A DNA stretch of 64,000 nt, from positions 1-64,000 of the forward strand of contig JADFNS010000011.1 of the NCBI GenBank assembly GCA_022563255.1, read 5' to 3'. Both the position numbers and the translations under genes were made by a program. This DNA comes from Pseudomonadota bacterium. GTDB lineage: Bacteria; Pseudomonadota; Gammaproteobacteria; Steroidobacterales; Woeseiaceae. The notes under the pieces are model-generated. The model worked only from the letters and a program-made list of their open reading frames with translations. It was not told the origin of the DNA and did not search any database. This document shows positions 10,528-34,900 of this stretch, piece after piece. The number at the start of each line of letters is the position of its first letter. Position 1 is the stretch's first letter.

Positions 10528-13500
10528 TTACAAACTGCCTGTTACGTTCAGGAAAACTCCCTGGTGGTCGTAGCTCAAGTCGGTCAGGTCGTCGGAGAAG
10601 TCCGTGAAGTTATAGCCCAAACCGATCTTGAGATGGTCGCCAAGATATCGGGATACGGTCGTTAGAAAACCGCTGCGGCTTTCGCTCAGGTCCGGCATAT
10701 CCAACACGCGAACTTCAACCATGAGCTCCCAATCATCGCGGAACTTATAGTCGCCGCGGAGCACGTACAAGCTCGCATTGTTTTCAAAGAAAATCGGGTT
10801 TTCCCGATCGAGGCTCACCTGGCCAAGCCGGTAGGCATACTTACCGCCGATCGAGATGCGCGGCGTGACATCGTAGTTGATATCGACGGCTGCGATATGA
10901 GTCTTCTGAATGAACTCAGCGGCGATGTTTTGCAGCGTAATCTGATCCGTCGTCGGCACATTGTAGAAATAAGTGTATTTGACCACGGCATTGAGGCGAT
11001 CATTGCTGACCGGACGATAGGCGTAACCGGCTACTGCTTCGGTAAATCCGCCATCGTAGAACGTGCCTAACGAACTCTCACTCTCTGAATGGTTCAGTTT
11101 TCCTACGATGCTTCCCGAGGGTCCCATCTGATATTTGAGACTGTTGCGAAACAACCAGGTCTTGTGTTCGTTTCGACTCATATCCAGTTGTTCAATATCG
11201 TCGTTGCGGTATTCGATGCCGCTGACGAATTGCAGTCTGGCCGATCCGAAGGCGATCTGAATCCCGCCCGCTATTCGGGCGGTCTCCGCACCGGTAACCG
11301 TGTCATGCAAGGTTCCAATGTCCGTATTAAGACCGAGACTCCATTTATCGCCCGGAGCAATACTGATACCTGTCGAATGAGTCAAACCCGTCATCGTATC
11401 GCTGCGTTGGTAGCGCTCTTCAAGGAAAACGCTGGCACTGTCCGAGAAGCGTGACTTGACACCGACGACCAGGTTCCCCTGGCTGCCGCGACCAGAATTC
11501 AGGCCATTGTCCGCCCGTTCGTTTTCGAGGGTGTAGTTGAGGTACATGCTCGTGCTATCGGAGTACTTGTAATTCGTTCCAAGCCGTCCTCCGGCGCCGA
11601 GATCGCCACTGGAAACTTCGGCGTCCAATCGCAGTATTTCAGAAAATTGCAGGGTGCCACCGATGCCGGCACGCGCGTTTTCCTTTCGCGTTCCGGTTAC
11701 AGAAAGCGTGTCTTGCACAAAGCCGTAGAGGTTCCAGTCAGCCTTCGAGTCATAACCAAGCTGCACGACTGCATCGGCTCGCTCACCTTCGTCCTGAGTG
11801 AGCGGCACAACGATCGATCGGTCAATGCGCTCGTCCGCACGATAACCGACGCTTACGTCCCAACGATCACCAAGTTTGTAAGCAAAAGTGTATTCCTGTG
11901 CCCGTGTCTCGATGCCTTGGGCCTGAATTCGATGATCGACTTTGGCACCGAAAACAAAGCGCTCTGCGACAGGCAGACTAAACGTGCCGCCGTAGAACTT
12001 TGTGTCAGTCAATGTCGTTAGTCCCGGTGCCGAGTAGCCGGCGTCGACTTCCTGCACATACAAAGTCATGCGTGCATCGACGCCGAGGTCGACTGCATCG
12101 GTAAAGCGCAAGCTGATATCTGCACGGCTGGCATCCGCTTTGGCGTTGACGAACTGTGTCGCGTCGTAACTGCTGAATTCATAACCACCGTCGGTCGAAA
12201 ACAACGGCATCGCCAACAGGCCCTCACTCGTCGCTTGTTGAACCTTGAGCCAGGACTCGGAGGTAAGTCTGAATGTCAGGTCCGCGGCCTGCAAGGTGCT
12301 GTCTTCGCCGTCTTGCTCATTCACGTTTGACGTCACGCCCAGCTTCACGTGGTCGCCAAACCAGTAATGCGCCTGACCGCCGATGGATAGTGCATCGATA
12401 GTGCCGAAACCAGGGCTGTACTCATAACGCACTACCAGGTACACCTCGTCACCGGAAACGGCCCCGCTGCGAATGAGCAAGTTGTCGTCGGCGGATGAGG
12501 CCAACGGCTCGTTTAGCACGACGCGGCCTTGCAGATAATCAATGTCGTAGTCGATCGTTGGTGTCAGGTTGACAACGCCGGTCACAATGCCCGACGCCTT
12601 GTCGCGCAACTCGATCCGGATTCGCTCCGACCCTGCGAGCAGGTCCTGGCGACGCAGAAAATACAGGGATCCGCCCGTTCCACGGAATTCCTCACGACTG
12701 CCGATCGTACCCGGTTCCGCGGCATAAACATCCACTGCGTACCGCTGCTTGCCAAAGTCTGTCGTTGCCACGGACTGATAATGCGCATTCGCGCCGTACA
12801 ATCCACGGTCAACATGTGCCAGCTCGTTGTTCACGTAGCCAATCTTGAAGTTACCCCACTGACCGTAATTGTTGTGCTGACTGACGCGTACGAAGAACTT
12901 GCCCATTGTCGGGGCCATCTCTGCCACGGTGCTGTCGTCACCAAAGGTCGGGTAGTAATACTTTTCATCGATACGCCTGAAAAACGCGTCGGGCGACTTG
13001 TCCATAAAGCCACTGAATATGTCCTTTATCGGTCCTTCTCGCGTATCGGCACTGGCCATCAGGTGCCAATCGTCGCCAAACTTTCCATTCACGAAGAACG
13101 CCAGTCGTCCATCGACGTTGGAATCAGGGTCGCTCGTTGAATTCGCACCTTGCAAGAGATTGATCGGTCCGTTCGATTTACTGCCGGAAACCGTAAGGTC
13201 CGCCATACCAACGTAGAACCAGTCGTTTTCTTTGAATTCAAGGTCACGCAGATATAGCTCACCACGTCCTTTTTTATCGAGTACAGAAACCTCAACCGTA
13301 TGCAATCCCTGCGGCAAGATTTCTTCGGCAACGAATTCGCCGTTTTCATCGACCGGAATCGGCCGACCGGCTACCCAGACTTCCTGCTCTTGCGAAATTC
13401 CACTACCACGTACGCTGACGGTGCCGCTACTGAGAGCGATATTTTGCAGGGCGAGCGTGTTTTGACCGTAGGCGGAAAACAACACGGCAGCCTCATCGGT

Positions 13501-15594
13501 TTCTACCGTCGGAAACTCATCGTCATAGTCGACCCACAATGCTTGCGGCGCCGTCTCATCGAAATTGCCATCGGTACTGTAGACTCTCAGCACGTAGGCC
13601 AGCTTCTTTGCAGGTGCCCGGAAGCTATTCGATGTCGGCCGCCAGGTCGACGAACTGTCGAGTTCCATCTTGATAACATCGAGCGGCTCGTCTTCGAGTG
13701 ATTGCCCGTTCTCGAATACTCGAATTTCCGCGCGATCGAAGAAATATGAATAATTTGTGTACATCCGGAACTGCACTTCGGATGCGAAGGTCTCACCATC
13801 TTCGAGCGTCATAACTGCGATGCGCGCAGGCGCAGCCGCCACGCTGAGTCGCGGAGCGGACTTCAGGTTGTCGAAGCCAAACTTGATATCAGCCTTCGCC
13901 AATGCAACGTCTGTACATCGTTGAATGTCCGCCGAACTGCGTTTTGGATCATCGATCGGCTCGCCGTCTACCGTGATTCGCATCAGGTTCAGTCGCAGCG
14001 GATTCTCGGGGCTGATTTCGCGGGTCATGCGTATGATATCAACGCCCTCATAGTCATCCAACACCGCGAGTTCGTCGAAAACAATCTGGACTGCAACATG
14101 TGATGTGCCGCCCTGAACAAATCCAGCATTGACGACATCATCCGAATGCACATAACCGCGACCTTCGAATTCAACCTGTGACGGTTCAAGCCCCATATCG
14201 ACAGCTATCTGCTGCATTGCTCGACGTGCCCGCGAGGCAGACAGACCAACGTCATCTGTGTAGACGCCCGCCGTACGGCGCGCGAGTCGTTCGTTGCGCG
14301 TGTAGCCAACGAAACGAAGTCGTGGATTGATCTTGTCAGCCACATCTCGCAGACCTCGTAGCAACGTTGTCGTATAGCCCGCCTGGACGACCGGCCGACC
14401 GGCCGCGAAATGGATATTTTCTATTACTCCCCAAGGAGGATCGTAAACCTTCGTCACCATCTCTGCGCCGGCATTGCCCGGACACAGTTGTGGCTCATCC
14501 GGCAGATCCTGCAACGGATCGTCATACCAGAATTCAACTTCAACCCGTCGATTAAGGGCGCGGCCCTGCGCCGTTTCGTTTGTACCTAGCGGTTTCTTGG
14601 CGCCACGGCCATCGCTTTCGATAGCGCTGGTTGGCAGATCCAGCTCGTCTTGAACAGCCAGTGCAACGCGGCGCGCCTGAGCTTTGGATAAGCCAACATG
14701 ATCACCGTAAATCCTCTCTGTGCGACCAATCAGGGGCAATCCGTCAGTGAAGCCAACGAACTTCACTACAACATTTTCTTTGTCTTCGAGATTGCTAAAG
14801 CCCTGTTGAACTTGTTCGATGAACCCGTCGTTCACCTCCACCGCCTCTGCGCTGTAGTGCAGCGGGGCGATTAGATTCTGAATTCGTGCGCGTCGGGCGT
14901 GACCGTCGACATACCGCAGCTTACAAACTGTTTCGATACGACACACTTTGACTGCCGCGACCTCGTGTTCGACCAGAAATTCTTCGTAACCAACCTGGTC
15001 ACGAATTTCGTCGTACCAAACTTCTACTTCGACGCGACGATTTCTCGCTCGACCTGCCGCACTGTTGTTGGACGCTGCGGGGTTCAAATCACCTCGCCAT
15101 GAATACGCTACCGCTTCGGCCGGTAATGCGAGAGCCGTTTGCATGTACTCGGCAACCTCGCCGGCGCGTTCGCGCGACAGACCCATGTTATCTGTATAAA
15201 TCCTGGCCAGGCGTGGTGACAAGCGTTCATTGTCAGCATGCCCCACGAGGTGCAAGCGAACGTTCAAGCGGTCTTTCATTCCGTTGAGAATTTCACTCAG
15301 GGCCTCAACCGTGCCCGCAGGAATTTGTGCGATACCGGACTCGAAGAGGATCGGCGCTACTACGTTGCCGAGCTTGATCGTTTCAAGAGCGTCCTCGACT
15401 ATTTCACGTGTTTCGATTTTATCGCTCGCTTCCGTAGCAAGGCGATCCGGATCTTGTACCCACTCCGAATAATCGATGTCGTTCGTAAGGTGACGTTCGA
15501 CGGGCTCGCCCATCGATACCTCATCGACATTCTCGGCGATCACAGCAATCGGCAAGCAGAGAACCAGTGCAATCAAGCGGGTCAGTGCATTCAT
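10528..15594 (-). CDS. Giant outer-membrane protein: three OmpA-like domains plus large beta-barrel
   Basis: A 1688-residue protein with a signal peptide (cut near residue 20, VIA|EN). Three OmpA-like peptidoglycan-binding domains lie at about 80-196, 240-358 and 392-508. Each carries a GLSxxRA-type helix (GLSRERA, GLSKAQA, GLSASRA); the first two end in NRRVEVE, the third is degenerate there. A beta-sandwich region follows (about 580-790). The rest, to 1688, is a long run of alternating beta-strands ending in a polar/hydrophobic strand (GVFLNVTGSL), as expected for an outer-membrane barrel. A turn-like motif DYDIDYLQGRVVLNEPL is seen before the barrel proper. Its start overlaps the DUF11 gene stop by four bases. 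The role is inferred: an outer-membrane platform or translocon for the DUF11 protein. Confidence 0.85.
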   Translation of the reverse strand: MNALTRLIALVLCLPIAVIAENVDEVSMGEPVERHLTNDIDYSEWVQDPDRLATEASDKIETREIVEDALETIKLGNVVAPILFESGIAQIPAGTVEALSEILNGMKDRLNVRLHLVGHADNERLSPRLARIYTDNMGLSRERAGEVAEYMQTALALPAEAVAYSWRGDLNPAASNNSAAGRARNRRVEVEVWYDEIRDQVGYEEFLVEHEVAAVKVCRIETVCKLRYVDGHARRARIQNLIAPLHYSAEAVEVNDGFIEQVQQGFSNLEDKENVVVKFVGFTDGLPLIGRTERIYGDHVGLSKAQARRVALAVQDELDLPTSAIESDGRGAKKPLGTNETAQGRALNRRVEVEFWYDDPLQDLPDEPQLCPGNAGAEMVTKVYDPPWGVIENIHFAAGRPVVQAGYTTTLLRGLRDVADKINPRLRFVGYTRNERLARRTAGVYTDDVGLSASRARRAMQQIAVDMGLEPSQVEFEGRGYVHSDDVVNAGFVQGGTSHVAVQIVFDELAVLDDYEGVDIIRMTREISPENPLRLNLMRITVDGEPIDDPKRSSADIQRCTDVALAKADIKFGFDNLKSAPRLSVAAAPARIAVMTLEDGETFASEVQFRMYTNYSYFFDRAEIRVFENGQSLEDEPLDVIKMELDSSSTWRPTSNSFRAPAKKLAYVLRVYSTDGNFDETAPQALWVDYDDEFPTVETDEAAVLFSAYGQNTLALQNIALSSGTVSVRGSGISQEQEVWVAGRPIPVDENGEFVAEEILPQGLHTVEVSVLDKKGRGELYLRDLEFKENDWFYVGMADLTVSGSKSNGPINLLQGANSTSDPDSNVDGRLAFFVNGKFGDDWHLMASADTREGPIKDIFSGFMDKSPDAFFRRIDEKYYYPTFGDDSTVAEMAPTMGKFFVRVSQHNNYGQWGNFKIGYVNNELAHVDRGLYGANAHYQSVATTDFGKQRYAVDVYAAEPGTIGSREEFRGTGGSLYFLRRQDLLAGSERIRIELRDKASGIVTGVVNLTPTIDYDIDYLQGRVVLNEPLASSADDNLLIRSGAVSGDEVYLVVRYEYSPGFGTIDALSIGGQAHYWFGDHVKLGVTSNVNEQDGEDSTLQAADLTFRLTSESWLKVQQATSEGLLAMPLFSTDGGYEFSSYDATQFVNAKADASRADISLRFTDAVDLGVDARMTLYVQEVDAGYSAPGLTTLTDTKFYGGTFSLPVAERFVFGAKVDHRIQAQGIETRAQEYTFAYKLGDRWDVSVGYRADERIDRSIVVPLTQDEGERADAVVQLGYDSKADWNLYGFVQDTLSVTGTRKENARAGIGGTLQFSEILRLDAEVSSGDLGAGGRLGTNYKYSDSTSMYLNYTLENERADNGLNSGRGSQGNLVVGVKSRFSDSASVFLEERYQRSDTMTGLTHSTGISIAPGDKWSLGLNTDIGTLHDTVTGAETARIAGGIQIAFGSARLQFVSGIEYRNDDIEQLDMSRNEHKTWLFRNSLKYQMGPSGSIVGKLNHSESESSLGTFYDGGFTEAVAGYAYRPVSNDRLNAVVKYTYFYNVPTTDQITLQNIAAEFIQKTHIAAVDINYDVTPRISIGGKYAYRLGQVSLDRENPIFFENNASLYVLRGDYKFRDDWELMVEVRVLDMPDLSESRSGFLTTVSRYLGDHLKIGLGYNFTDFSDDLTDLSYDHQGVFLNVTGSL

Positions 15595-18500
15595 CGTTCA
15601 CCTCCCCGCGGCTGCGCAACCGGTCCACCCAGTCGCCAGTGAATTTCCTGCTCAATGACGAGTTCGTAGCAACAGTCGAGTTCTTCCCACACGTCCGTTA
15701 TCTGCCTCTTCAAACTGTGCAGTCGTTGCTCGACCAGCGCTTCTGGTTCAACGTCCGCGACGTAAGAAAGACGCAATATTGCCGGCGCCTTTTGCAGCTC
15801 TTCGATCAGCAGGCTGATGCGCGGCACCCACTGCTGGCGCATGGTTACTTCATTCAGTTCGAAAACTGCGTCGGCAATATCGAGACCAACGACACGATGA
15901 ATCGACGCCCCGAAGTTGACGCGCAACGTCTTGCCACGCGTCGCACGCTGCACCTGTACCGGGCGTGTCGATGGTCGGAAACCGCTCGGCAATGTCCGAT
16001 CATCGAGTTTCAATATGAAATTGCTGCCACGACTTTCGTTCGGAACGATCGCGCAGGTAATGTGATAACGACCGTAGGAGTCCGTGCTTGCAACCAGTCC
16101 TTTCGCGGTTACCAAACGGACCCCGGACAAGCCTTCTTCGTCATTGTCCTGATAGCCGTTGCGATTCGCATCGTTGAATACCTTGCCTGTGACATCGGTG
16201 CAGTCGAAGGTTGGGTCCGGGATAATTCTAACTTTCGCCGACGCTTCTTCCGATATTGCGGCACCTAATATTGAGTTCATCGCCTGCGCACGATTCACGA
16301 ACTCGCCTTCGGTGACGCCAGCACCGACCGCCAGCAGCAACTTGATCGTGTGGCGACCGTCTACGGCCAGCGTAAAGTCCGACCAGATCAATTCGCGTCC
16401 GACGATGGCCGGTTCCAGTGGCTGGTCATCGAATCTCGCCGAGCCCGCAATGTAACGAAAGCCCGCCGGGAAGCGATCGATGATACTGACGTCCTGCAAA
16501 TCGACACCAAACGAATTGCTGATCGTAATGATGTACGGAACCAGCTGTCCGCGTGTCACGTTCAGCATCGGTGTCGTCTTTGTAATCGCGACCGCACCGC
16601 CCAGGCGAGGATCAAGCGGCACATGGTTATTAAAGAGTTGACTCGTGCCGGGTACCTGAGCAGAGCTTAGCCGCAGGAAAAGGTGGTAGTCGGTCGCCGT
16701 GCTTCTCGCCGGAACGGATGCAGGAGGCGCAAACTCGGACGGCTGCGCTTCGCAAGTTTGCGCGGTCGCGAGTACGGCATCGGTTGCGGAACCCGGGCAC
16801 GATGGAACGTCAAACGGCAGCGTCGTCTGATCCGACGTCGGCGGAATCAGCTCGGACAACCCGGGCGCATAACTCGTGTCCGGTGCCGTAGCCTGAATCA
16901 GGTAATTGAGTCCACTCGGGCACGCCGGGTCCGAGAAGTTGATAGCGAATTTGTAGTAGCCGTTCGCGATCGTCACCTGGCCCTGGTGATTTGGGTCGTC
17001 GAAGCACGTGGCTGGCAGGGCAACGCCGTTGCGGGCATCCAGAAGTGTCACTACGACACCGGCAACTGGCGTCCTGGCGACAGAATCATAGATAACACCG
17101 TTCGGATCGACCGGCAGATTCAGCGCGAGCAGATTGCTGCCTGCGGTCACTTCGATTTCGTTAATCCGTTGCTGACCGTCTGTAAAGTCCGAGTCGGTTT
17201 CACCCAGCAAGGCTGTCGTAGAAACCGCCCCGGGCGCGCTAAAGCGCAGCGAATACAGCTGGCCGGTCGCGTAATTAGGGATGACATTCGTCAGCAAATA
17301 GTATCCATCAGCATCGGTGAGCACCGACCACACCGGCTGATCGTCCAGCAACAGCTGCACGGTCCATCCTTCGAGAGGCCGTTCGACCGCATCCGGTGTG
17401 TTGTCGTGGTCTGCGTCATGCCAGACGTTGCCACTCAACATGCCGGCATCCGGCATGGCGCCGACGTCGATCATGACGGTCGCGTCCGCCTGCTGTTGCG
17501 GGTCGTCCCAATAAACGCGTGCGGTGTTGACGATCGTCGTGCCTTCGACGAGGTTCGGATTGATGGTGGCACGGAAACGCAACACCACCGATTCACCCGG
17601 CAGTAGCGGTCCATACTCAGTGAAGTAGTCGGCCGTGATGACAGAGCCGGCCACATTGATGCCATTGGCCAGACCATTCAATGTCGCGGACTGGTCGACG
17701 TAGGACAGGTAGCCGGGATTCGTTTCGTCGAGGTCATCCCGCAGGGTCACGTACAGCGCAGGTACCGTGCCAACGTTCTGTACCGTAACGACGTACTCCA
17801 GTGTCGCGCCGGCAATCGCCGCTCCACCGTCAACAACCGAAACTTCTTTTACGATCGTAAGTACTTGCGCATCACCAACAACCACCACCGTCGGTTCCGG
17901 CCCGGTCGCGGGGTTGCCATCACCATCAGTCAACAGGTCCGCAAGCTCATCGCTGTACACAATCGCCTGGTTTACGATCAGGGTGCCGCGAGCGACTCCG
18001 GCATCAACCTGCAAATCGAACTGCACGATCGCAGACTCGCCCGGAGATAATATCCCCTCGCCGACACCTGGAAGCGGCGGCGTCAGGTCTGACGAACTGA
18101 CCGGGAGGCCTGCTGCCAGCGGGAATGTGCCACCGTCCGGCTGGCCGGCAGGCAGGCCGTTAAGCGTCGTCGAATCTGCAACATAGGTTGTGTTGGCCGG
18201 CACATTGTCGAACAGTTCGGCAAGCGTTGCGGGCACGTTGCTGTTGTTGTAAATCGTAATCGTATAGCGCAGCACATCGCCGGGATCGACGATTCCGGAT
18301 GAGCCATTGTCGATCTGCAGCGCTGCAGACTTTGTAGCGAACAACAACGGGAAATTGCCCACGACGTCGCGCGTCGGATCGTCCACCAATGCTGTGCGCG
18401 GATCGTCCGACGGTTGATCTGCAATACCCTGGTCGACAGCGCTGATGAATGCCTGGTTCGATATTACGGTGCCATCCGGTACGTTCGCATTAACGATGAC

Positions 18501-22211: not shown

Positions 22212-22279
22212 CCCTAATTTCTGTGCGCCGACGACGGCGTCACCATTGGGGATAGCGCGATCGAAAATCGTTATTCGTA

Positions 22280-22479: not shown

Positions 22480-23877
22480 TCAGGCCGCTGGGAGGAAGTC
22501 AATCGGATAGATTATGGTAACTGCGACAATATCTTTCTTGGCACCGAAATCAAACCCGATAACGCGCTCAACAACCTGTTCAGCGAGGGCCGGCGCGTTC
22601 ATATCGGACGACTGTGTTATGCAGAATGACACCGACCCATCGGGCTCAATTGTCAGCTTCAGAATAATCTGGCCACGGAGCGTAGGATTCTTCCGTAGCT
22701 CGCGATTGTAGAGGCGATACAGTGATGCCTTATAGCGATCGAAGACAATTTGAATTTCCTCGTCGGTGCGGCCGGCGAATGCACCACTACTGCGCGGACG
22801 ATTTGATGTGCCACTACCACCTGTGCCAATAGAACTCGAGACACGAGAAACCTGAACGCCGCCGATGCCCTGGCCACCCCCGCCCACATCGCGACTTATC
22901 TCGGCGAGATTAATACCACCACTTGAACCCGGCGCATTTGACGTAACCATAGAGCGCGTTGGCCGACCGATCGCGTTTTCCCCGGCATTGCTGAACCGGG
23001 CCTGAGAACCCAGTTGAGCGGTGAGTCGCAAATTCGCGCGACTGGCAAAGCTTTCGCGGAACGCCAATATGCCTTTCGATTTCACCTGCTCTTTCGTATT
23101 GACTTTGGCGTTATCCGCCACAGCGGGTACATTAACCGCTTCGGGTACCACTTCCTCCGGTAGCGTCTCGGCCAGCTTTTCAGGTTCGGGTTCCGGTAAG
23201 GTTTCTTCGTAAATTTGCTCGGGCTCTGGTTTCGGGCGTGCCCTGTTTTTCTGAACCAGCTTCGCTACTCGCTCAGGTACTTTGATGACCTGGTCCCGTT
23301 CAGCGATCGGAATTGCGATGGACCCAACGAGTATCGCCAAAAAGATGGATGCAGCGAGAGACGACCACAGAGATTTTCGGAAGCGCTCGTCTTCCTCGTT
23401 ACCTCGTGTCCACGGCATAATCTGGATGTGCTGGACATCGTCGGCGTCACGTTCTACAAGCCACTCATTCTTGCGAGTCTCTTGCTGCTTCGCGATATCA
23501 ATTAAATTGTAGTGCAGATCATCCAGCTCTCGATTCTGATCGCCGATTTGTTCGAGGGCGAGGTCCCGACTATTTTCGACACGTTGGATTTCGGCATTGT
23601 AATCGTCAATTTTTCGGTGTGCGCTGGCGAGTTTCGCAGCACGCATTTCGGGATCATCTTGCGTATTCCAGAATAGATCTGTCGCATCCAGACTTTCGAG
23701 CTCTTGCAGAGCACGGCAGATCTGCCCCAGAACTTCGAATTCGTAACTTTTCTCGGCGAGTGACGTAAGCTTGTCGACGATGCCCTGCAAGCCCTGTTCC
23801 AGGCCTGACAGTTGCTGCTCGGAATTTTCGAATCGATTCCTGAGTGACTGCTCTGTGTTTGAGAGATTTTCGGTCAC
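22480..23877 (-). CDS. AgmX/PglI-type TonB-like energy transducer
   Basis: A 465-residue single-pass inner-membrane protein. Residues 1-150 are hydrophilic and helical with coiled-coil character and are expected in the cytoplasm. One membrane helix lies at about 171-191. A Pro/Glu/Lys-rich periplasmic linker (about 200-250, PKPEPE and LPEPEPEK) and a Gly/Ser-rich stretch (about 315-365) lead to a TonB-like C-terminal domain at about 370-462 (YNRELRKNPTLRGQIILKL, PDGSV). TonB-like proteins transmit proton-motive energy from ExbB/ExbD to the outer envelope, and the AgmX/PglI subgroup is known from gliding systems. It follows exbD by 24 bp. The large cytoplasmic coiled coil is unusual for TonB and suggests a cytoplasmic partner. 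Confidence 0.87.
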   Translation of the reverse strand: MTENLSNTEQSLRNRFENSEQQLSGLEQGLQGIVDKLTSLAEKSYEFEVLGQICRALQELESLDATDLFWNTQDDPEMRAAKLASAHRKIDDYNAEIQRVENSRDLALEQIGDQNRELDDLHYNLIDIAKQQETRKNEWLVERDADDVQHIQIMPWTRGNEEDERFRKSLWSSLAASIFLAILVGSIAIPIAERDQVIKVPERVAKLVQKNRARPKPEPEQIYEETLPEPEPEKLAETLPEEVVPEAVNVPAVADNAKVNTKEQVKSKGILAFRESFASRANLRLTAQLGSQARFSNAGENAIGRPTRSMVTSNAPGSSGGINLAEISRDVGGGGQGIGGVQVSRVSSSIGTGGSGTSNRPRSSGAFAGRTDEEIQIVFDRYKASLYRLYNRELRKNPTLRGQIILKLTIEPDGSVSFCITQSSDMNAPALAEQVVERVIGFDFGAKKDIVAVTIIYPIDFLPAA

Positions 23878-23901
23878 GCTGGCATCTTCATACGTACGAC
23901 G

Positions 23902-24405
23902 CTAGTTCGCCGCCAGTTGTGCGCCTTTCTGCGTCACTGCCAGAGAAACCTTCTCGAAACCCTCGTCCGTACACGTTGCCATAATTGTCTTGATCACGAT
24001 GAACGGTACCGACTTGTCCGCGAGAATCGTCACTTCCTGACTCGTCGATACGGTCAGCGTATTTATCCCGATCACACTTTTCTTTAGCTGCGCAAGCCGC
24101 GCCGCAATGGGATCCAAAGCGCTCGACTTGTCTTCGAGAATGTCATTCACCATAGCTACCAATTGCCCCTGTACCAGCACTTCTGTAGGGCTGATGAATA
24201 TCACCACGGTCTCTCGCGGTTTCGTTTCTACGCGCGATTCCGGAAGACTCACTTCCTTCGGTGAGTCAAGCACCTCAATCGAACCAGAGTTTACAAGCAG
24301 GAAAAATACAAGAATTGTAAAGACGTCCATCAATGACGTTAAATCCATTTTGGAGATTTTCGAGCGATTCCGTCCCATGCGCTTGATTCGGCGAGAGTTC
24401 CTCAC
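23902..24405 (-). CDS. ExbD/TolR-family protein (second)
   Basis: A 167-residue ExbD/TolR protein: a basic cytoplasmic N-terminus, one membrane helix starting MDLTSLMDVFTILVFFLLV with the proton-path Asp, and a periplasmic domain. It partners with ExbB in a proton-driven motor. It overlaps the preceding exbD by four bases (ATGA). The two ExbD proteins differ clearly, so they are probably a heterodimer rather than a recent duplication. Confidence 0.92.
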   Translation of the reverse strand: MRNSRRIKRMGRNRSKISKMDLTSLMDVFTILVFFLLVNSGSIEVLDSPKEVSLPESRVETKPRETVVIFISPTEVLVQGQLVAMVNDILEDKSSALDPIAARLAQLKKSVIGINTLTVSTSQEVTILADKSVPFIVIKTIMATCTDEGFEKVSLAVTQKGAQLAAN

Positions 24406-24896
24406 GGCGCTTCTCCCACGGAAATTTCAGAGAACAGTGCGTACAGCTCGTACTCGTTCTCAACTTCGGTCGGCACTTCGACAGCACGAACAATGTCCAT
24501 TACCTGGATCAAATAGTCGTACGGAATATAGTCCTCCATCAGTACAGAAGCCGCGTCGATATTCGGGTATTCCTGTTTCAACGCGACCATCATTTCCGAA
24601 AGCGCGTCAAGATCGTAATCACCATCTTTCTTCGGGACCAAAGCGATAATTGCCGTCCCGTTGCTGATTTCGATGCCCGGCTCTCTAACGATAACTTCGA
24701 TCCGGAAGCTCTCCTGCCGCGGAGTAGCACCATTGGCGTTGCTCGGCAAATCAAGCTCTACAATGGTCAGTCTCGAGAAAACAGCGGTTATCAGGAGAAA
24801 CGGGATCAGCACCACCATAAGATTCAGGAATGTGGTGACATCGATATCGTATGTGTTTCCCTTGTTACGCCGCTTGTAGTGATGTTTCCGCGCCAT
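24402..24896 (-). CDS. ExbD/TolR-family protein (first)
   Basis: A 164-residue protein beginning with a Lys/Arg-rich stretch, then one membrane helix with the family Asp (YDIDVTTFLNLMVVLIPFLL) and a periplasmic domain. It forms a proton-driven motor with ExbB and the second ExbD. It lies five bases after exbB, so this is the usual exbB-exbD-exbD order seen with AgmX-type transducers. Confidence 0.92.
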   Translation of the reverse strand: MARKHHYKRRNKGNTYDIDVTTFLNLMVVLIPFLLITAVFSRLTIVELDLPSNANGATPRQESFRIEVIVREPGIEISNGTAIIALVPKKDGDYDLDALSEMMVALKQEYPNIDAASVLMEDYIPYDYLIQVMDIVRAVEVPTEVENEYELYALFSEISVGEAP

Positions 24897-24901
24897 TTCG
24901 T

Positions 24902-25552
24902 TTACGCCTCAACGACACGCATCGCCCTTCTGGAAAATACGTTCAACGCCTTGACTGTTGCCATCTCGAGACTGTCAACAATGTCGCCGGTCTTGCTTGT
25001 CAAAATCGCGTGAACGACGAGTAGCGGTATGGCGACCATGAGTCCGAACGCGGTCGTGTTCATGGCGACGGATATACTCGCCGACAACAAGTCAGCTTTT
25101 TCCGCCGGGTTAGCATTCGCAACCGCTGTGAATGCCTGTATCAAACCCATGATGGTGCCGAGCAATCCAAGCAGCGTCGCGATGCTTGATGCCAATGCTA
25201 CGTAGGGTGTTCGCTTTTCGAGGCGTGGCACTATTTCCATCATGCTCTCCTCCATCGCGATCTCGATGTCTTCACGACGGCGAACAGCGCCCTGCAGGGA
25301 CAACCCCATGTTCAAAACCTGCGAGATTGTCGATTCGTCGTTGCCGGTCATTTCCCGTGCTTTGGTGAATTCGCCGCTATCCAGCAACGGCTGTACTTTG
25401 CTCCAAACTGCCCGGTTCTTGATCGTAATCAGCGTGAGCGTTATAAAGCGCTCAACCGCAATTGCCACGCCGAACGCAAACACCAGGAGTATCGGATACA
25501 TGAACAGACCGCCCGTTGCGAAGAAGGCTACAATCGAATAGAAAAAGTCCAT
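24902..25552 (-). CDS. ExbB/TolQ/MotA-family proton channel protein
   Basis: A 216-residue inner-membrane protein with three helices: one N-terminal (MYPILLVFAFGVAIAVE) and two after a cytoplasmic loop. The latter contain the conserved ALASSIATLLGLLGTIMGL and MNTTAFGLMVAIP motifs that line the proton path. I chose the ATG at 25552, which has GAGG eight bases upstream, over a TTG at 25573. It is the first of the motor genes and follows the small secreted protein gene by 116 bases. Confidence 0.93.
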   Translation of the reverse strand: MDFFYSIVAFFATGGLFMYPILLVFAFGVAIAVERFITLTLITIKNRAVWSKVQPLLDSGEFTKAREMTGNDESTISQVLNMGLSLQGAVRRREDIEIAMEESMMEIVPRLEKRTPYVALASSIATLLGLLGTIMGLIQAFTAVANANPAEKADLLSASISVAMNTTAFGLMVAIPLLVVHAILTSKTGDIVDSLEMATVKALNVFSRRAMRVVEA

Positions 25553-25668
25553 CTCAATACCCTCGTTTAACAAAATATGCCGGCATTTAACCGAATAGAT
25601 GCCAGATTAGACTTGGAGCGCAACGAATAACGTGACGCAGTGCACGTTCGGGGGTGATCGTGAGCAGA

Positions 25669-25971
25669 TTACTCGCCTGAACGAATCTCGAAGTATTCCA
25701 GCTCGCGGAGAAAAACTTCCTTGTCGACCGGCTGGGCCCGGTCGGCCAGCGTATCTGACAAGCCGATATCATCCCCCATTTCGGAAGATTTCCACGGAAC
25801 GATTACCAGTGACTTCGGCGTCTCCTCGTTACCAAGGATCGACATACCCGACAATTTCTTTACTCCCTCTACCGGTGTTGCGTCGGTCCTGGCCGTATCG
25901 GCCTCGTCCTCCGCCGCCGATATTGACGGCGACAGCGACAGAATTAACAATAAATACAATGTCTTGTTCAT
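25669..25971 (-). CDS. Small exported protein of the AgmX-type cluster
   Basis: A 100-residue protein with a signal peptide (LLLILSLSPSISA|AE), an acidic spacer, and a compact motif SILGNEETPKSLVIVPWKSSE in its centre. Similar small proteins accompany AgmX/ExbBD/TPR clusters in other gammaproteobacteria, as far as I recall, but none has an assigned role. Its ATG overlaps the TPR lipoprotein stop by one base (TAATG). It is likely periplasmic and part of the machine by context only. Confidence 0.75.
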   Translation of the reverse strand: MNKTLYLLLILSLSPSISAAEDEADTARTDATPVEGVKKLSGMSILGNEETPKSLVIVPWKSSEMGDDIGLSDTLADRAQPVDKEVFLRELEYFEIRSGE

Positions 25972-26624: not shown

Positions 26625-26639
26625 TGGGTCTGAGTTCAC

Positions 26640-29600
26640 CTAGTTTCTGCTGACAAGACCGGAAGGCGCTGGCGCCTGTGACTCGTCGGACTCCGCTACG
26701 CCTTCTCCATCGCCATCGGTTTCAGGCGCGATGGGCATCCGATACGCAAATACATCGATCGATCCGAGGAATCCCTCGCTACTTTCATTCTTGGCATAAC
26801 GACCTGGCATCAGTGACGCCAGCTCATCGAGGCTCTTTTGCACCCAGGCGTTGTAAATGCCGGCGGCCAGTAGTTCAAAGTTTGCTTCATGAACTTTGAT
26901 TGCCCTTTCCTCGAATGGCCAGGCCTCTTCTTCGATGACCAACTCGTACGCACTCATCTCGGCTGCGGAAAGACCGTCCGGACGCTCCGATTCCATCAAC
27001 GCCGCACTGAATTCGCGATACGTTTCGGCAATGTAATAGGTGGCTGCAGCGGTAACCCCGGCAACCTCATAGTCCACCAGTTTTTCAAACGTAGCCAATG
27101 CTGTGTCCATGTGCGTCTGTTTTTGGGCCAGGCTCGCCTCGAAAGGCTGCACCAGCTTGAGGCCCGCGAATTGTTTGTAGACTTGCTCGGCAAGGAGCAG
27201 CGCTGCGCCGGCAGCAACATAGCGACTACGGTCCGTCCGATCGACTCCGGCCTCACCGTCAACAATGACGATCGCCGCCAACTGAGCGAAGTAACGCGGG
27301 TAGTCGAGCTGTTCCTCAAAAATTTCGGCCAGACGTTTGCGCGTCTCTATGGCGTAATCTATTGGCCGTGGATAGTCCTCCACATATTGCTCGTAGACAC
27401 GCACTGCCTCTGCCATCGCCTTGGCCTCGTCATACAATTCACCCGCAGTCAGCAAGGCTTCCCGACTAAGCTCAATGTCGTCTGACTCTTCCGAGATACG
27501 TTCATGCTCGGCGGCAGACCTCGCCAGTTGACCATCTTCGCGATAGATATACGCGAGCTGCGTGGTCGCATCGTTGTGCAATTCGTGATCGGGGTTCGAT
27601 GTTCTGAACTCTTCAAGTACGTCGGCGGCCATAGTCCAGTCCTGCAGCTTCATCAACGCCGCAGCGGCGTCGTATTCTGCAGATGTTCGGATACTGGATG
27701 TTGGCGCCAACTCCTTAATGCGCAAGAAGTGATTTGCTGCACTGCGATAATCTGCAAGCAGATTCGCCTGTTCAGCCTGTTTGTAAATCGATGCGGCAAG
27801 ACCGTCAATAACCGCCGGCCGTGACTCGTCGTCTTCGGGCGTTAGCTTCAGCAGGTTCGCATAAGCATGCTCGGCGTTTTGGTATTCGGCGGTATCGATG
27901 GATGAGTGTGCGACCACGGCCCAGGCAGTACGTCTCAGGTCAGGATCTGACGCGGGATAACGCTCAATCAGCTTGCCGGCCGAATCGATCGCTCGCACAA
28001 AGTCTTTCATTTCATAAAGATCGTCTGCGGCCGCAGCAAGCACCACAGGCGCCCGATCATGCTGCATGAAAGTGTCCGCAAATCGCAGCGAGCTCTCTAC
28101 TGTCAATTCCTTTACATCGCGCTGGCGGGCGCCGGTTGCACGATCCAACTCCTGACGATAGGCGAATACCGCGGCGTAGCCCGCAGCCGACGCCTGCTCA
28201 TGATCGCCGTACTCATAGGCAGTAAGCTCATACTCAAGTGCTGCACTGATGAAATCTTCATTCTCAAGCAGCAGGTCGGCCAGCTGATAATTTATCTTTG
28301 GAGTCTCCTCATCGGCCGGAAAGGAGCTCAGCAGTTGTCGATACCAGCGATGCGCCTCATCGAAGTTGGTCGCCTTTTCTTCGGGCGACACACCTTCCTG
28401 GTAGAGTGCGTGATAGTGGCCCGCGAGGTCGGTCAGATTCGTTTTCAGAAAACCGGTAACGTCAGGCGCACTATCGACATCGTGACGATTCCAGTATTCC
28501 GATGACAGCGCGTAGCGAGTCGCGAAATCTTTCTTTGCCTCCACAACCAGCAACGGAAAATTGGCATCGTCGAATATCTCAACGACGCGCATGCCGAAGT
28601 GTGGAGACCTTTTGTGGTACGGGTACAACTCGATGAAAGAGCGATACACCGACGCCGCGTCGTTATACCGTAGTTTGGTGAAATAGAACTCGCCAAGATT
28701 GCTGTAAATTTTGTCACCGTAGCTACGGCGACCCTTTTCGGAAAAGTACTCGTCGACGACTTCCGGTCCACCCAAATTTGAGAAACTCAGGCTAACGACA
28801 CGGAAGGTATCGGTTATACGATGCTTGTCGTCGTCATCCTCATGTTCATCGAAGTCATAGCCGATTGATTTATGATAGTCGAGTAACGTAACGAAATTAT
28901 CCAACGCCTCATCGTAAAAGGTTTGCTTATACAGTGCCCACCCGCCTTTATAGAGCGATAGTTCGTAATAGATTGAGTTCGACCCAAGGCGGATCACTGC
29001 GTTGTAGGCTGCCTCGGCGTCGCGAAAGTTTTTTCTAACAAAGAAGTATTCACCGCGGCGAAACTGCACCTCATCAACGTATTTTGAGTGCGGATACTCA
29101 CTGACGAAGCGGTTCATAACATCCATCGCCTCATCAGGTTGACCGACCTCATCGTGCGCGCGCGACATTTGGTAAAGCACCTTGTCGTTGCGCTCGTAGT
29201 TGGGATAGGTCTCGAGGATCTCCTTATAGGTCTCGATGGCTGCACGCGGACCGGCCGGAATCGTCGCTCCGTCCACGGCAAGCAATTCTGGTTCGCTGCT
29301 CGTGCCCGGCGTAAGAAAATCTTCGCGCTGTGTTGCTCGTTGCTCGAACTCCCGGTCCGATTCCGAAAGTTCTACGGGTCCTCTCGACGGATCGCGAGCA
29401 GCAGTGACGCTTCGGGAGGCGACCTCCGGTTCAGTCATCTGCCGGACTTTACCGTTGCCCATGATTCCATAGGCCTGCTCGATTTGCAGGTCAGCAAGAC
29501 GGCGCATTGCTTCGGGCGTCCTCGCGCTTCCTGATGTTTCCTCGAGATAACGACGATAACTCTGGGCGGCGCGCTCCAGGCTGTCATCAAGGTAGACGTC

Positions 29601-29717
29601 TTGAAGATCCGCCTTGACCTCGCCGAGTTCAGCCAGTGTGCCGTTTCTGACCGTAGTCGTTCCGCACGCCACGACGACGCTTAGCAGAAACACGAGTACC
29701 AGTAGCTTATTGATCAT
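26640..29717 (-). CDS. Large TPR lipoprotein (1025 residues)
   Basis: Lipoprotein signal with Cys at residue 18 (SVVVAC), then many TPR-like helical hairpins along the chain (for example AIETYKEILETYPNYERND, AMDVMNRFVSEYPHSKYVD), similar to BamD/CpoB-type periplasmic TPR proteins but much longer. The C-terminus is a Pro/Asp/Glu-rich tail. It probably acts as a periplasmic scaffold between the inner-membrane motor and the outer membrane. It overlaps the preceding TPR gene by four bases. Confidence 0.85.
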   Translation of the reverse strand: MINKLLVLVFLLSVVVACGTTTVRNGTLAELGEVKADLQDVYLDDSLERAAQSYRRYLEETSGSARTPEAMRRLADLQIEQAYGIMGNGKVRQMTEPEVASRSVTAARDPSRGPVELSESDREFEQRATQREDFLTPGTSSEPELLAVDGATIPAGPRAAIETYKEILETYPNYERNDKVLYQMSRAHDEVGQPDEAMDVMNRFVSEYPHSKYVDEVQFRRGEYFFVRKNFRDAEAAYNAVIRLGSNSIYYELSLYKGGWALYKQTFYDEALDNFVTLLDYHKSIGYDFDEHEDDDDKHRITDTFRVVSLSFSNLGGPEVVDEYFSEKGRRSYGDKIYSNLGEFYFTKLRYNDAASVYRSFIELYPYHKRSPHFGMRVVEIFDDANFPLLVVEAKKDFATRYALSSEYWNRHDVDSAPDVTGFLKTNLTDLAGHYHALYQEGVSPEEKATNFDEAHRWYRQLLSSFPADEETPKINYQLADLLLENEDFISAALEYELTAYEYGDHEQASAAGYAAVFAYRQELDRATGARQRDVKELTVESSLRFADTFMQHDRAPVVLAAAADDLYEMKDFVRAIDSAGKLIERYPASDPDLRRTAWAVVAHSSIDTAEYQNAEHAYANLLKLTPEDDESRPAVIDGLAASIYKQAEQANLLADYRSAANHFLRIKELAPTSSIRTSAEYDAAAALMKLQDWTMAADVLEEFRTSNPDHELHNDATTQLAYIYREDGQLARSAAEHERISEESDDIELSREALLTAGELYDEAKAMAEAVRVYEQYVEDYPRPIDYAIETRKRLAEIFEEQLDYPRYFAQLAAIVIVDGEAGVDRTDRSRYVAAGAALLLAEQVYKQFAGLKLVQPFEASLAQKQTHMDTALATFEKLVDYEVAGVTAAATYYIAETYREFSAALMESERPDGLSAAEMSAYELVIEEEAWPFEERAIKVHEANFELLAAGIYNAWVQKSLDELASLMPGRYAKNESSEGFLGSIDVFAYRMPIAPETDGDGEGVAESDESQAPAPSGLVSRN

Positions 29718-31600
29718 GGCGAATCGTCCAGTCTCGCCTGTGCCTGGGTAGCACGGTCATAGCTGTCGGCTAGTGCGAACCGCGCCTTGTCTCCATAATT
29801 TTCGAGATGGTTGCGGCGCGCAACGAGTTCCTCAATCGCGAGCACTTCGAGTAAATGACCCTGACGAGCCATGAGCTGCTCGATTTTCTCGGCTGACTGT
29901 TGTACTTCCGCCCGCAGGCGTCTCATCGGCTTGCCATAGCCAACGTAGCTGTGAGTCGCGGCCTGGCGGATTCGTACGTACTCATCGTACTCGTCCTGGA
30001 CCATCGCCATCGCCTGATCCAGGCCACGCACGTTTTTGTCGAATTCGGTCAGGCGTTCGTGATACTCAGTGCGCAATGTGTAGTTGAGAATTCCTTTCAA
30101 TCGCTTCAGGCGCCGCAGGTTTTTCTCGTTGGTGCTGACATCCAAAGCCGCAATTTGCGCTTCGACAATTTCGATGCGACCAAGAATCGCTTGCTCATCA
30201 GGCGTTGCCAAAAAATTCGGACGCGGCATTGTCAAAAGATCGTCGCGCCGTTTGACCAGCATCTTGTGTTGCGCAAAGCGTAAACGCATGCGCGAGTCTA
30301 GCTTGCGGAATTGTTCGTCGACCTCAGGCAACAATGGAGCATAGTGGTCTGCCCGGATTTCGACCATTTCTTCAAACGCGTCGAACCCTCCGCTCCATGT
30401 CTTCAATTTACGGCGCAAATCGGCAAGGTCCAGGTAATTTTGCAAGCCGGTCTGAAAATCGTGAGATGCCAGCAACTCCATCAGGTAATAAGTTTCTGGC
30501 GTCTGTGGCAGCGTCCTGAGACGAATCACCCAGTCTTTGTTTTGTCGGATCTCTTCTCGAACCAGCGCCTCAAGAAAATGGCCTTCCCGAATGCTGTCGA
30601 CGGAGCTGTTGAGCTTTTGGATCTCGGCGCTGAACAAATCAAGCGCACGTCCATAGTTGATTGCGGCTCGACCATGAACATTCAGCTTGCCATAGGCATA
30701 CGGCAGTGCCAGCAGCGCCTCTTGCGTTGCGCTGTCTGTAACTTCCCGATCGGCGAGAATGCTCCAGGGCACCGTCGCACGCTCGAAGTCCCCGATCGAC
30801 ATACTCGCCCAACCGGCACTAAGCAGTGCCTGGTTCGAAAACGGCCCGTCCAAGCGTATCCGGTTGAGGTACTGCAGTGACCGTTCAAACTCATTGTCTT
30901 CAAGCAGGATCGTACCAAGTACGAGATTTGACTTGTCGCGAATGGCAAGCTCGCTTGGGTCGTCAGTCTTCGCTTGTCCAGCCTTTTCGAGTTGTTCGAG
31001 GGCAGCGCTGCGCTGACCGTCTTGCAGGTAGGCGATACCAAGATTGTAGGCTGCAAAACCACCATACTCGTCCGAGCCTTGCAGGTTTTTCAAGACTTCG
31101 ACAGATTCAAGTTGCTTGCCCTGCGCCAGGTAAATGTTCGCACGCAGAAACGCAATATCATCACGGATCGAGTGCGGCACTTCGCCGTCTATGCGATTAA
31201 GCGCCAGTAGCGCATCTTCCATCTGCTGTTTCTGGAAGTGGATTCGCGCGAGGCGATAAGCGGCATCATTGCGGATAACTTCATCTACAGCACCCTCAAG
31301 AACCGCCCTGATGGCGCGGCCCGCGCGGTGATGCATTCGGTAGCGCAACTCGAAGTCACCGAGCGAAAACTCGGCATCGTCAATATGCACAAATAGAGAA
31401 TCCAGTTCGGGCTCGTCGATCTGGTCGTGCTGCCAAATCTCCGTATCCAGACGTTCCAACGCCTCGAAAAACTGCCCTTGGCGAGCGTAATAGATGGCCT
31501 CGCCGAAGTAGAGATCGTTCAGTTCACCGGCGTGCGCCGGGGCCACGGCCAGGAGAACAAACAACAGGCCCAGCGCCGAATTCGATATTCGGAACACCAT
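29714..31600 (-). CDS. Periplasmic TPR protein (628 residues)
   Basis: Signal peptide cut near residue 24 (APAHA|GE), then TPR repeats in the first 330 residues (YYARQGQFFEALERLDTE, AAYNLGIAYLQDGQRSAAL) and a long helical, coiled-coil-rich C-terminal half with a basic/acidic repeat pattern. No lipobox, so it is probably soluble in the periplasm. It is co-transcribed with its neighbours: the start codon follows the upstream stop directly, and its own stop overlaps the large TPR lipoprotein start. Confidence 0.83.
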   Translation of the reverse strand: MVFRISNSALGLLFVLLAVAPAHAGELNDLYFGEAIYYARQGQFFEALERLDTEIWQHDQIDEPELDSLFVHIDDAEFSLGDFELRYRMHHRAGRAIRAVLEGAVDEVIRNDAAYRLARIHFQKQQMEDALLALNRIDGEVPHSIRDDIAFLRANIYLAQGKQLESVEVLKNLQGSDEYGGFAAYNLGIAYLQDGQRSAALEQLEKAGQAKTDDPSELAIRDKSNLVLGTILLEDNEFERSLQYLNRIRLDGPFSNQALLSAGWASMSIGDFERATVPWSILADREVTDSATQEALLALPYAYGKLNVHGRAAINYGRALDLFSAEIQKLNSSVDSIREGHFLEALVREEIRQNKDWVIRLRTLPQTPETYYLMELLASHDFQTGLQNYLDLADLRRKLKTWSGGFDAFEEMVEIRADHYAPLLPEVDEQFRKLDSRMRLRFAQHKMLVKRRDDLLTMPRPNFLATPDEQAILGRIEIVEAQIAALDVSTNEKNLRRLKRLKGILNYTLRTEYHERLTEFDKNVRGLDQAMAMVQDEYDEYVRIRQAATHSYVGYGKPMRRLRAEVQQSAEKIEQLMARQGHLLEVLAIEELVARRNHLENYGDKARFALADSYDRATQAQARLDDSP

Positions 31601-32128
31601 TTACCAGTCTCCTACCTGAATCGCGTTGGTACCAAATCCGGGTCCCGCGAGCGTAATACCGAGCACCTTGGGTTTGACGCCTTTGGTAAAAACAAAACTG
31701 CTTGATTCGTTGAAATCCTTGCCGTTCCTGAGCTTACCGATCATGGTTACGTTGAGCTGGTGGTCTCCGGTCGTCAGGTTTCCCGTGTAAATCCTTTGCA
31801 CACCACCGTTTTGCAACGCGTCCAGCTCCTTGAAGCTGTATATGTGGTGCGTGGCGAGCTCCCCATCAATCTCGAGCTTGACGGCGTCCAGTCGAAATTC
31901 ATCGTCTTCGGCAATCGACACAAATAACGATATCTGGGTATGTGAGGGAAACAGCAGGCGTTCTTCCAGCGTATTGAGCTCAGAAGCGATGCTCAGCACA
32001 TCTGACTTAATCGCCTGAACTTGTCCATCCAGGCTGCGCATGCTGTCACCGGACAACTCCTGTGCGGTGCTTGATATTGGGCTACCGGCAAGCAGCAGCA
32101 ACAATGAGCAGCACAATAGATTTGACAT
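31601..32128 (-). CDS. Small exported protein, first gene of the AgmX-type cluster
   Basis: A 175-residue protein with a signal peptide (cut near STAQ), a heptad-like helical stretch (about 33-58) and a C-terminal beta-sandwich region. It is preceded by a good ribosome binding site (AAAGGAA seven bases before the ATG). Relatives in such clusters are sometimes labelled AraC-like regulators in databases, but there is no DNA-binding domain here and it is clearly exported. Its function is unknown; by context it is part of the periplasmic assembly. Confidence 0.75.
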   Translation of the reverse strand: MSNLLCCSLLLLLAGSPISSTAQELSGDSMRSLDGQVQAIKSDVLSIASELNTLEERLLFPSHTQISLFVSIAEDDEFRLDAVKLEIDGELATHHIYSFKELDALQNGGVQRIYTGNLTTGDHQLNVTMIGKLRNGKDFNESSSFVFTKGVKPKVLGITLAGPGFGTNAIQVGDW

Positions 32129-34871: not shown

Positions 34872-34900
34872 GGACAAACCCTCAAAGTTGAATTCTTATT

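What the first reader, a model, noticed from the sequence alone, without database searches (positions are those of the whole stretch)
10528..32128. Candidate PMF-driven surface system: AgmX/ExbB/ExbD motor, TPR scaffold, DUF11 fibre and OmpA-barrel
Eleven same-strand genes with frequent 1-4 base overlaps encode a proton motor, a TonB-like transducer, three periplasmic or lipid-anchored TPR proteins, two small exported proteins, a 2206-residue surface protein and a 1688-residue outer-membrane protein. The set resembles gliding-motility or envelope-spanning machinery but has no known integral homologue that I can name. I infer export, anchoring or movement of the DUF11 protein powered by the motor.
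Basis: partly seen in the sequence, partly recalled or inferred. Interest (0 to 1): 0.88.

Follow-up and report, generated by a model that had tools for sequence, protein, structure and literature searches.

The report
Motor-coupled giant surface-fibre operon
A sediment bacterium carries an eleven-gene operon that joins a proton-driven envelope motor, related to the machine that lets Myxococcus glide, to a giant fibre protein and an unusually large outer-membrane barrel, with the fibre genes placed behind a cyclic-di-GMP RNA switch; the same package recurs in several bacterial phyla and gives a long-puzzling motor complex a concrete, testable partner.

Summary
The eleven genes are there as described. 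Nine of them (sp175-GltC-GltD-GltE-small-ExbB-ExbD1-ExbD2-GltG) are not without homologue: they are the Agl-Glt/Nfs 'core complex' of unknown function described in Gammaproteobacteria in 2011. Tree and synteny show two paralogous kinds. Type B stands alone with a short GltG. Type A (this window) has a GltG with an extra N-terminal region and is tied to a DUF11 fibre gene plus a 1,688-residue OmpA/barrel gene. Of 80 nearest barrel loci in named genomes, 51 are motor-linked, 1 is not, 28 cannot be judged. In Desulfuromonadales the order is swapped but linkage kept; in some Myxococcota and Acidobacteriota fibre and barrel are one protein. Distant motor-free DUF11/barrel pairs lie outside this clade. 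New here: a c-di-GMP-I-type riboswitch directly upstream of the DUF11 gene (61 bits in the window; 20 of 45 type A loci by hand count, four phyla), with a terminator in some Desulfuromonadales. AlphaFold predicts about 40 strands for the barrel. Most likely: a cyclic-dinucleotide-controlled adhesive fibre anchored in a giant barrel, on which the motor exerts force. Force, movement and surface display are inferred, not shown.

The parts
31601..32128 (-). sp175: small protein with signal-like N-terminus, first gene of the core
   Evidence: (homologue in 21 fetched stretches, the same number as for GltC)
29714..31600 (-). GltC-like TPR protein with signal-like N-terminus (628 aa)
   Evidence: (NF033756 E 1.8e-5, under cut-off)
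26640..29717 (-). GltD-like TPR protein with lipobox (1025 aa)
   Evidence: hhalign probability 100 over 864 columns to the ORF after GltC in a Myxococcota genome
25971..26639 (-). GltE-like TPR protein with lipobox (222 aa)
   Evidence: (NF033758 E 3.9e-9, under cut-off)
25669..25971 (-). small100: small protein with signal-like N-terminus, found in both cluster types
24902..25573 (-). ExbB/TolQ-family proton channel; T140 and T174 kept in 46 of 46 aligned
24402..24896 (-). ExbD1: ExbD/TolR family, Asn25 where the proton-carrying Asp would be (Asn in 48 of 50 aligned)
23902..24405 (-). ExbD2: ExbD/TolR family, Asp27 in 50 of 50 aligned
22480..23877 (-). GltG/AgmX-type TonB-like transducer (465 aa) with an N-terminal region of about 150 residues that the type B rows lack
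22277..22363 (-). c-di-GMP-I riboswitch aptamer in the leader of the DUF11-barrel genes
   Evidence: RF01051, 61.2 bits, gathering score 35
15591..22211 (-). DUF11/SdrD_B fibre protein (2206 aa); penultimate domain predicted SdrD-B-like, last about 95 residues beta-alpha-beta-alpha-beta
10528..15594 (-). OmpA(x3)-giant-barrel outer-membrane protein (1688 aa), overlaps the DUF11 gene by 4 nt; barrel about residues 791-1688

Best explanation
A branch of the Agl-Glt/Nfs family. An ExbB-ExbD1-ExbD2 proton motor, coupled through the TonB-like GltG and a periplasmic TPR scaffold (GltC, GltD, GltE), exerts force on a dedicated outer-membrane partner: a giant OmpA/barrel protein that holds a long DUF11 fibre at the cell surface. 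The fibre-barrel unit is expressed as its own segment of the operon under a cyclic-dinucleotide riboswitch, so it is made or stopped when the cell changes between free and attached life. Shown here by computation: homology, gene order, linkage within one clade, fusions, motor residues, riboswitch. Inferred: surface location, physical contact between GltG and the barrel protein, force or movement, direction of the switch, role in attachment.
For: Core tree (43 rows): 10 type B clusters (GltG 311-364 aa where complete, no DUF11 gene) against 33 type A clusters (GltG 441-517 aa where complete), support 100 on both sides (labels partly set by hand, see full report). 51 of 80 barrel loci motor-linked, 1 not, 28 undeterminable. 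All 44 linked rows fall in one 79-row branch (support 99); 8 of 9 motor-free rows lie outside. Order swapped but linked in Desulfuromonadales. Fibre and barrel in one protein beside the motor: 5115 aa in a Myxococcota MAG, 3096 aa in an Acidobacteriota MAG. Not selected by barrel: of 8 genomes with a type A GltD (800 bits or more) among 275, 8 also hold a barrel of 44% identity or more. Riboswitch before DUF11 in the window and 19 other loci. Asp and Thr motor residues kept. OmpA domain 1 keeps Asp121 in 68 of 72 and Arg143 in 72 of 72.
Against: No experiment. In G098 the gene after GltG is a multihaem cytochrome and the fibre-barrel pair lies on another contig. L073, titled a chromosome, has the pair without the core beside it and only a GltD fragment about 0.95 Mb away. 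5 of the 50 barrel genomes searched had no GltD match at E 1e-20. No riboswitch was found in 25 of 45 type A loci; the 12 Microbulbifer and 3 Alcanivorax genomes searched have none of this family. If OmpA domain 1 holds peptidoglycan the barrel may be immobile. The 80 barrel loci are the best of 576 and lean to near kin; most type A rows of the core tree were reached through the barrel. The core-barrel distance correlation (r 0.845, n 30) is partly shared ancestry.
Confidence: 0.5

Rival explanations
1. Secretion machine: the giant barrel is a translocon and the motor drives export of the DUF11 protein through it, as PorLM and SprA do in type IX secretion.
For: Barrel predicted at SprA-like size; GltD scores with the type IX TPR lipoprotein PorW/SprE model (E 3e-15, under its cut-off), which is TPR similarity and therefore weak.
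Against: Fibre and barrel are one polypeptide in some loci, and motor-free pairs and fusions exist, so display does not seem to need the motor; motor proteins are ExbB/ExbD, with no PorL/PorM hit.
Confidence: 0.2
2. Co-regulated but mechanically separate: a static adhesin next to a core complex that does another job (for example envelope or polymer transport); linkage reflects shared timing only.
For: Type B cores occur without an adjacent DUF11/barrel; 2 of 10 type B loci searched also have a cyclic-dinucleotide riboswitch upstream; G098 keeps the parts apart.
Against: Linkage kept through a gene-order swap and over several phyla, pairing within one clade and the type A-only GltG extension.
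Confidence: 0.2
3. Polymer transporter like Myxococcus Nfs: the motor moves a polysaccharide, and DUF11 protein and barrel are its surface binding part.
For: Agl-Nfs rotates a polymer at the spore surface (PMC3858216: start of abstract, passages).
Against: None of the eleven genes matches a polysaccharide synthesis or export family; genes outside the set were not surveyed for this.
Confidence: 0.1

Closest known systems
Agl-Glt / Nfs machinery of Myxococcus xanthus
   Same: GltC-GltD-GltE-GltG order as in Myxococcota clusters, TolQ/R-type motor with two ExbD proteins, TonB-like GltG C-terminus
   Different: No over-cut-off match to other Glt models among the ten proteins scanned; instead DUF11 fibre, OmpA giant barrel, riboswitch; one ExbD lacks the Asp
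Gammaproteobacterial group B core complex (Luciano 2011, PMC3169522)
   Same: The core genes are this complex; some genomes have two copies, as reported there
   Different: The passages and section read name one extra gene, and the main text has no occurrence of DUF11; here a separate paralogous branch with DUF11 and barrel partners is defined. Figure S1 was not available to me
Type IX secretion/gliding (GldLM, SprA, SprB, SprE, PorE) of Bacteroidota
   Same: Overall plan: proton motor, TPR lipoprotein, OmpA-type parts, giant barrel, giant adhesin
   Different: Other motor family by Pfam and NCBIfam; no sequence relation of the barrel found
Tol-Pal
   Same: TolQ/R-like motor, TonB/TolA-like transducer, OmpA-type partner, TPR protein
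   Different: OmpA domains sit on a giant barrel with fibre, not on a lipoprotein; extra GltC/GltD
Motor-free DUF11 + OmpA/barrel pairs or fusions
   Same: Same fibre-barrel pairing, as neighbouring genes or one protein
   Different: Outside the motor-linked branch; the two nearest (L050, L051) are shorter and show by eye a single OmpA-like segment

Membership tests
Agl-Glt/Nfs core complex | gltD homologue | tested here: met
   A4 profile matches the ORF next to GltC in 6 of 6 Myxococcota genomes searched, the six with the best GltC scores; hhalign probability 100, E 1.3e-40 over 864 columns in G344
Agl-Glt/Nfs core complex | gltC homologue | tested here: met
   Weak: NF033756 E 1.8e-5 for the window, far under its cut-off, no hit at 1e-3 for type B L032 and L052; our profile gives 25-52 bits in Myxococcota ORFs at the right place. 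Position carries most of the weight. The single hhalign labelled GltC picked the neighbouring ORF and tests nothing
Agl-Glt/Nfs core complex | gltG with AgmX/TonB-like C-terminus | tested here: met
   NF033768 over cut-off, NF033760 E 1.2e-8 but under cut-off; hhalign probability 97.8 over 94 columns, the last part only
Agl-Glt/Nfs core complex | TolQ/TolR-like motor of one ExbB and two ExbD proteins | tested here: met
   same ExbB-ExbD-ExbD-GltG order in Myxococcota L178 and L180
Agl-Glt/Nfs core complex | gltE TPR lipoprotein | tested here: met
   NF033758 E 3.9e-9, under cut-off and behind generic TPR models; position supports it
Myxococcus gliding machinery (full) | group A genes gltA, B, F, H, I, J, K | not tested
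   No direct search for each; NCBIfam scan of ten of the eleven proteins (DUF11 left out) gave none of them over cut-off
Myxococcus gliding machinery (full) | gliding motility | not testable with these tools
   needs culture
Type IX secretion system | PorL/GldL-PorM/GldM motor family | tested here: not met
   Motor proteins match MotA_ExbB and ExbD families; no PorL/PorM hit at E 1e-3
Type IX secretion system | SprA-type giant barrel | tested here: inconclusive
   Foldseek lists a type IX chain, 8gl6_A, at rank 39, TMq 0.20; no SprA family match by sequence among those shown
OmpA peptidoglycan-binding domain | Asp and Arg of the binding site (recalled) | tested here: met
   Domain 1: Asp121 68 of 72, Arg143 72 of 72; domain 3 position 433 is Asp in only 21 of 72 and Arg in the window
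c-di-GMP-I riboswitch class | covariance-model score over gathering | tested here: met
   61.2 against 35 bits in the window; variants RF03167/RF03168 score best in L083, L099, L039

The most novel reading that the evidence does not exclude
A proton-driven surface-fibre machine, separate in origin from type IX secretion, present in at least Pseudomonadota, Myxococcota, Acidobacteriota, Thermodesulfobacteriota and one Nitrospirota MAG: an Agl-type motor with a half-active ExbD pair (one Asp, one Asn) pulls or moves giant DUF11 fibres (about 1,600 to 5,000 residues) through or along an outer-membrane barrel larger than SprA (about 40 predicted strands), under a cyclic-dinucleotide signal when cells meet a surface.
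Probability: 0.3. Interest if true: 0.92.

Novelty: new variant of a known kind. Interest (0 to 1): 0.72.

Why it matters
The Agl-Glt core complex of Gammaproteobacteria was described as having unknown function in 2011 (PMC3169522, section 7 and passages seen) and called a possible basal transport machinery in 2013 (PMC3858216, passages seen). One branch of it now has a dedicated, conserved partner and, in part of the branch, a signal that controls that partner, in cultured organisms (Microbulbifer species, Alcanivorax nanhaiticus, Geotalea sp. SG265). That makes the question of what the core does directly testable. The predicted barrel would be among the largest known, and the Asn/Asp ExbD pair bears on whether such motors need one or two proton-carrying subunits.

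Tried and rejected
Export as the main reading: lowered because motor-free pairs and fused fibre-barrel proteins exist. DUF11 C-terminal domain as an OmpA domain: hhalign probability 3.6, 5.9 and 22.6 against the three OmpA domains, and one of ten shuffled controls against the first reached 3.5; a first try with a bad alignment gave 0.1; AlphaFold shows beta-alpha-beta-alpha-beta, but the PDB lists were filled by the SdrD-like domain: left open. ECF sigma and anti-sigma genes at 32995-34877 as part of the system: these queries appear as best hit in none of the 20 stretches, of which only some reach far enough upstream, so not treated as a conserved part. Sigma-70 promoter scan of three gaps: 0 found. 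Viral structure library: nothing useful. Solved structures: GltG profile only weak TonB and prefoldin hits, GltC profile generic TPR. Type 11 secretion as a lead: in the passages seen the co-occurring domain was DUF1194, not DUF11. Literature: the listings of searches show no paper that I recognised as describing the DUF11/OmpA-motor set; only open-licence papers are held and no supplements could be read, so this is not proof of novelty.

Full report
WHAT IS THERE. The window lies in a draft genome (2.45 Mb, 34 contigs, 84% complete). Named relatives among the best protein and locus hits are Woeseiaceae, marine-sediment Gammaproteobacteria (taxonomy). Eleven minus-strand genes run from 32128 down to 10528. 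Pfam and NCBIfam give TPR, MotA_ExbB, ExbD twice, AgmX/PglI C-terminal domain, DUF11/SdrD_B and OmpA.

THE CORE HAS A NAME. In 2011 Luciano and colleagues described seven genes, gltD, E, G, C and aglR, Q, S, plus one extra gene, clustered in Gammaproteobacteria and Geobacter, function unknown, sometimes in more than one copy (PMC3169522: section 7 and passages seen). I tested membership. A GltC search of 57 Myxococcota genomes gave 47 with a match at E 1e-3 and 1 over the strict cut-off. In the six best of these, 6 of 6, my GltD profile hits the ORF next to GltC, with GltG 5-7 kb on. hhalign of our GltD family to one such ORF covers 864 columns at probability 100. Two Myxococcota clusters, L178 and L180, show sp175-GltC-GltD-GltE-ExbB-ExbD-ExbD-GltG in the same order, L178 with a small100 match too; the sp175 and small100 matches there are weak (E 3.1e-5, 3.3e-4, 0.0024). 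GltC similarity is weak and leans on position.

TWO PARALOGOUS KINDS. Searching relatives with GltD gave 15 of 20 genomes with a match, several with two copies. Reading neighbourhoods separated type A (core genes, then DUF11, then OmpA/barrel) from type B (core genes, GltG about 320 aa, no DUF11 or barrel beside it). The window's own genome has both: type A in the window, type B on contig C6 at about 95.4-104.3 kb. A tree of GltC+GltD+ExbB+ExbD1+ExbD2 from 43 clusters splits 10 type B from 33 type A rows, support 100 (FastTree). Labels of the 33: 24 had a DUF11 or barrel gene over 200 bits in the same stretch; 7 I set by hand (L043, L143 and L145, whose fibre gene runs into a neighbouring stretch; L046 and L048, where Pfam finds DUF11 after GltG at a contig end; L151, where the next ORF is not recognised; L044 = G098, where it is not DUF11); 2 (L144, L152) were tagged noDUF because their partial DUF11 genes scored 177 and 167 bits. 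Most type A rows were reached through the barrel search, so the tree shows that type A is one branch, not how often it is linked. Type A GltG has about 150 more residues before a conserved PW motif and the membrane helix; the type B rows lack them.

LINKAGE, COUNTED. One (L073) is not linked. 28 end before the motor could be seen. In 45 of the 50 genomes sent to GltD was found somewhere. In the barrel tree (87 rows: 44 linked, 9 motor-free, 34 undetermined; 12 Microbulbifer loci left out) all linked rows lie in one 79-row branch, support 99, with L073 the only motor-free row inside. Not selected by barrel: 275 class-level genomes, 102 with any GltD match at E 1e-3, 8 (own genome included) with a match of at least 800 bits; 8 of 8 also have a barrel of 44% identity or more, against 37 of 275 with any barrel match. 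Adjacency is seen in 4 of the 8 (window, G036, G146, and G176 by coordinates), DUF11 follows GltG to a contig end in 2 (G110, G252), 1 core was not fetched (G267), and 1 is not adjacent: in G098 a multihaem cytochrome follows GltG. The other way round, 8 of 9 genomes with such a barrel have the type A GltD; G220 does not.

TWO SIGNS OF PARTNERSHIP. First, in Desulfuromonadales and relatives (L083, L084, L086, L089, L096, L099, L107) and one Nitrospirota MAG (L111) the module sits upstream of sp175 instead of downstream of GltG, yet stays attached. Second, one open frame carries the barrel and far more than the barrel protein's length in L090, L091, L098, L104 and L117; DUF11 is confirmed in L104 (3096 aa) and L091 (5115 aa in all, next to the motor), and not checked in the other three. 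Motor-free fusions exist too: the window's own genome has a 1994-residue one with DUF11 and OmpA domains. The fibre-barrel unit can thus do without the motor, which is why I prefer 'the motor acts on an anchored fibre' to 'the motor exports the fibre'.

THE MOTOR LOOKS LIVE BUT LOPSIDED. ExbB keeps Thr140 and Thr174 in 46 of 46; ExbD2 keeps Asp27 in 50 of 50; ExbD1 has Asn25 in 48 of 50, Asp only in L079 and L099. That these are the proton-path positions is recalled from ExbBD/TolQR work. The Myxococcus counterparts AglQ and AglS are both said to carry a conserved aspartate, and whether they pair is not known (PMC9389320, passages seen).

THE BARREL. AlphaFold on residues 539-1688 with 56 sequences: pLDDT 78, pTM 0.70; by my count 42 strands of seven or more residues between model positions 253 and 1149. 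Closure and exact number are not shown. SprA, the type IX translocon, is called 36-stranded (PMC12611786, passage seen). Solved-structure matches are general outer-membrane barrels. Three OmpA domains precede it; they are homologous to each other (hhalign 99.9-100) and the first keeps the recalled binding residues.

THE SWITCH. The 268-nt gap holds a c-di-GMP-I riboswitch at 22277-22363, minus strand, 61.2 bits, ending 65 nt before the DUF11 start. Rfam finds the same class before DUF11 in Acidobacteriota (L106), Myxococcota (L153) and, in tandem, Desulfuromonadales (L083, L099), and about 0.5-0.6 kb upstream of sp175 in type B loci L037 and L039. A model built from 16 copies that I chose near clusters was run on 82 loci (1.58 Mb): 28 matches, 15 of them seeds; of the 13 others 11 lie directly before DUF11, 1 before sp175, 1 elsewhere (L092 and L125 repeat L027 and L024; the match in L024/L125 is weak, 31 bits). 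That is the window plus 19 distinct loci with a switch before DUF11, out of 45 distinct type A loci in which I judged the DUF11 start readable (hand count). In one search (stricter filters) 24 of 51 genomes have the class at all; the Microbulbifer ones have none. In L084, L089 and L099 a terminator-like hairpin with a T run follows the aptamer, so there it looks like a transcription switch; in Gammaproteobacteria the platform is unclear. The variant RF03167 may answer to cGAMP (recalled, not tested). Woeseiaceae are reported to grow attached to sand grains and particles (PMC12175321, passages seen), which fits but proves nothing.

VERDICT. A real, conserved machine: a new variant of a known kind. 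A force-generating role on the fibre is the most likely reading, not a shown one.

Noticed in passing
G000:C6 about 95400-104300 (locus L020): The window's own genome holds a second, type B core cluster without DUF11 or barrel beside it.
   Followed up: partly
L037:1653-1737, L039:3268-3350: c-di-GMP-I-type riboswitches lie upstream of two type B core operons (2 of 10 type B loci searched).
   Followed up: partly
L115/L116, L131/L136, L065: Tandem DUF11-barrel modules behind one motor in Microbulbifer sp. YPW16 (last 900 residues of the barrels identical) and, by coordinates, M. sediminum; a tandem pair also in a Woeseiaceae MAG.
   Followed up: no
L044:1-2176: In G098 the gene after type A GltG is a multihaem MtrC-like cytochrome instead of DUF11.
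   Followed up: no
G121:C2 near 461416-463986 (L054): Barrel match inside an 11,777-residue open frame; its other domains were not scanned.
   Followed up: no
window 33395-34877: ECF sigma factor gene and a gene for a protein with one predicted membrane helix just upstream of the operon; no homologue came up beside the type A clusters read.
   Followed up: partly
G000:C3:26366-32350 (L058): Fused DUF11-OmpA-barrel protein of 1994 residues, with no motor beside it, in the same genome.
   Followed up: partly
G001, G004, G011: Three same-genus genomes of 1.5-2.5 Mb lack any GltD match; small Woeseiaceae genomes are reported from the water column (PMC12175321 passage), so both cores may track attached life.
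   Followed up: no
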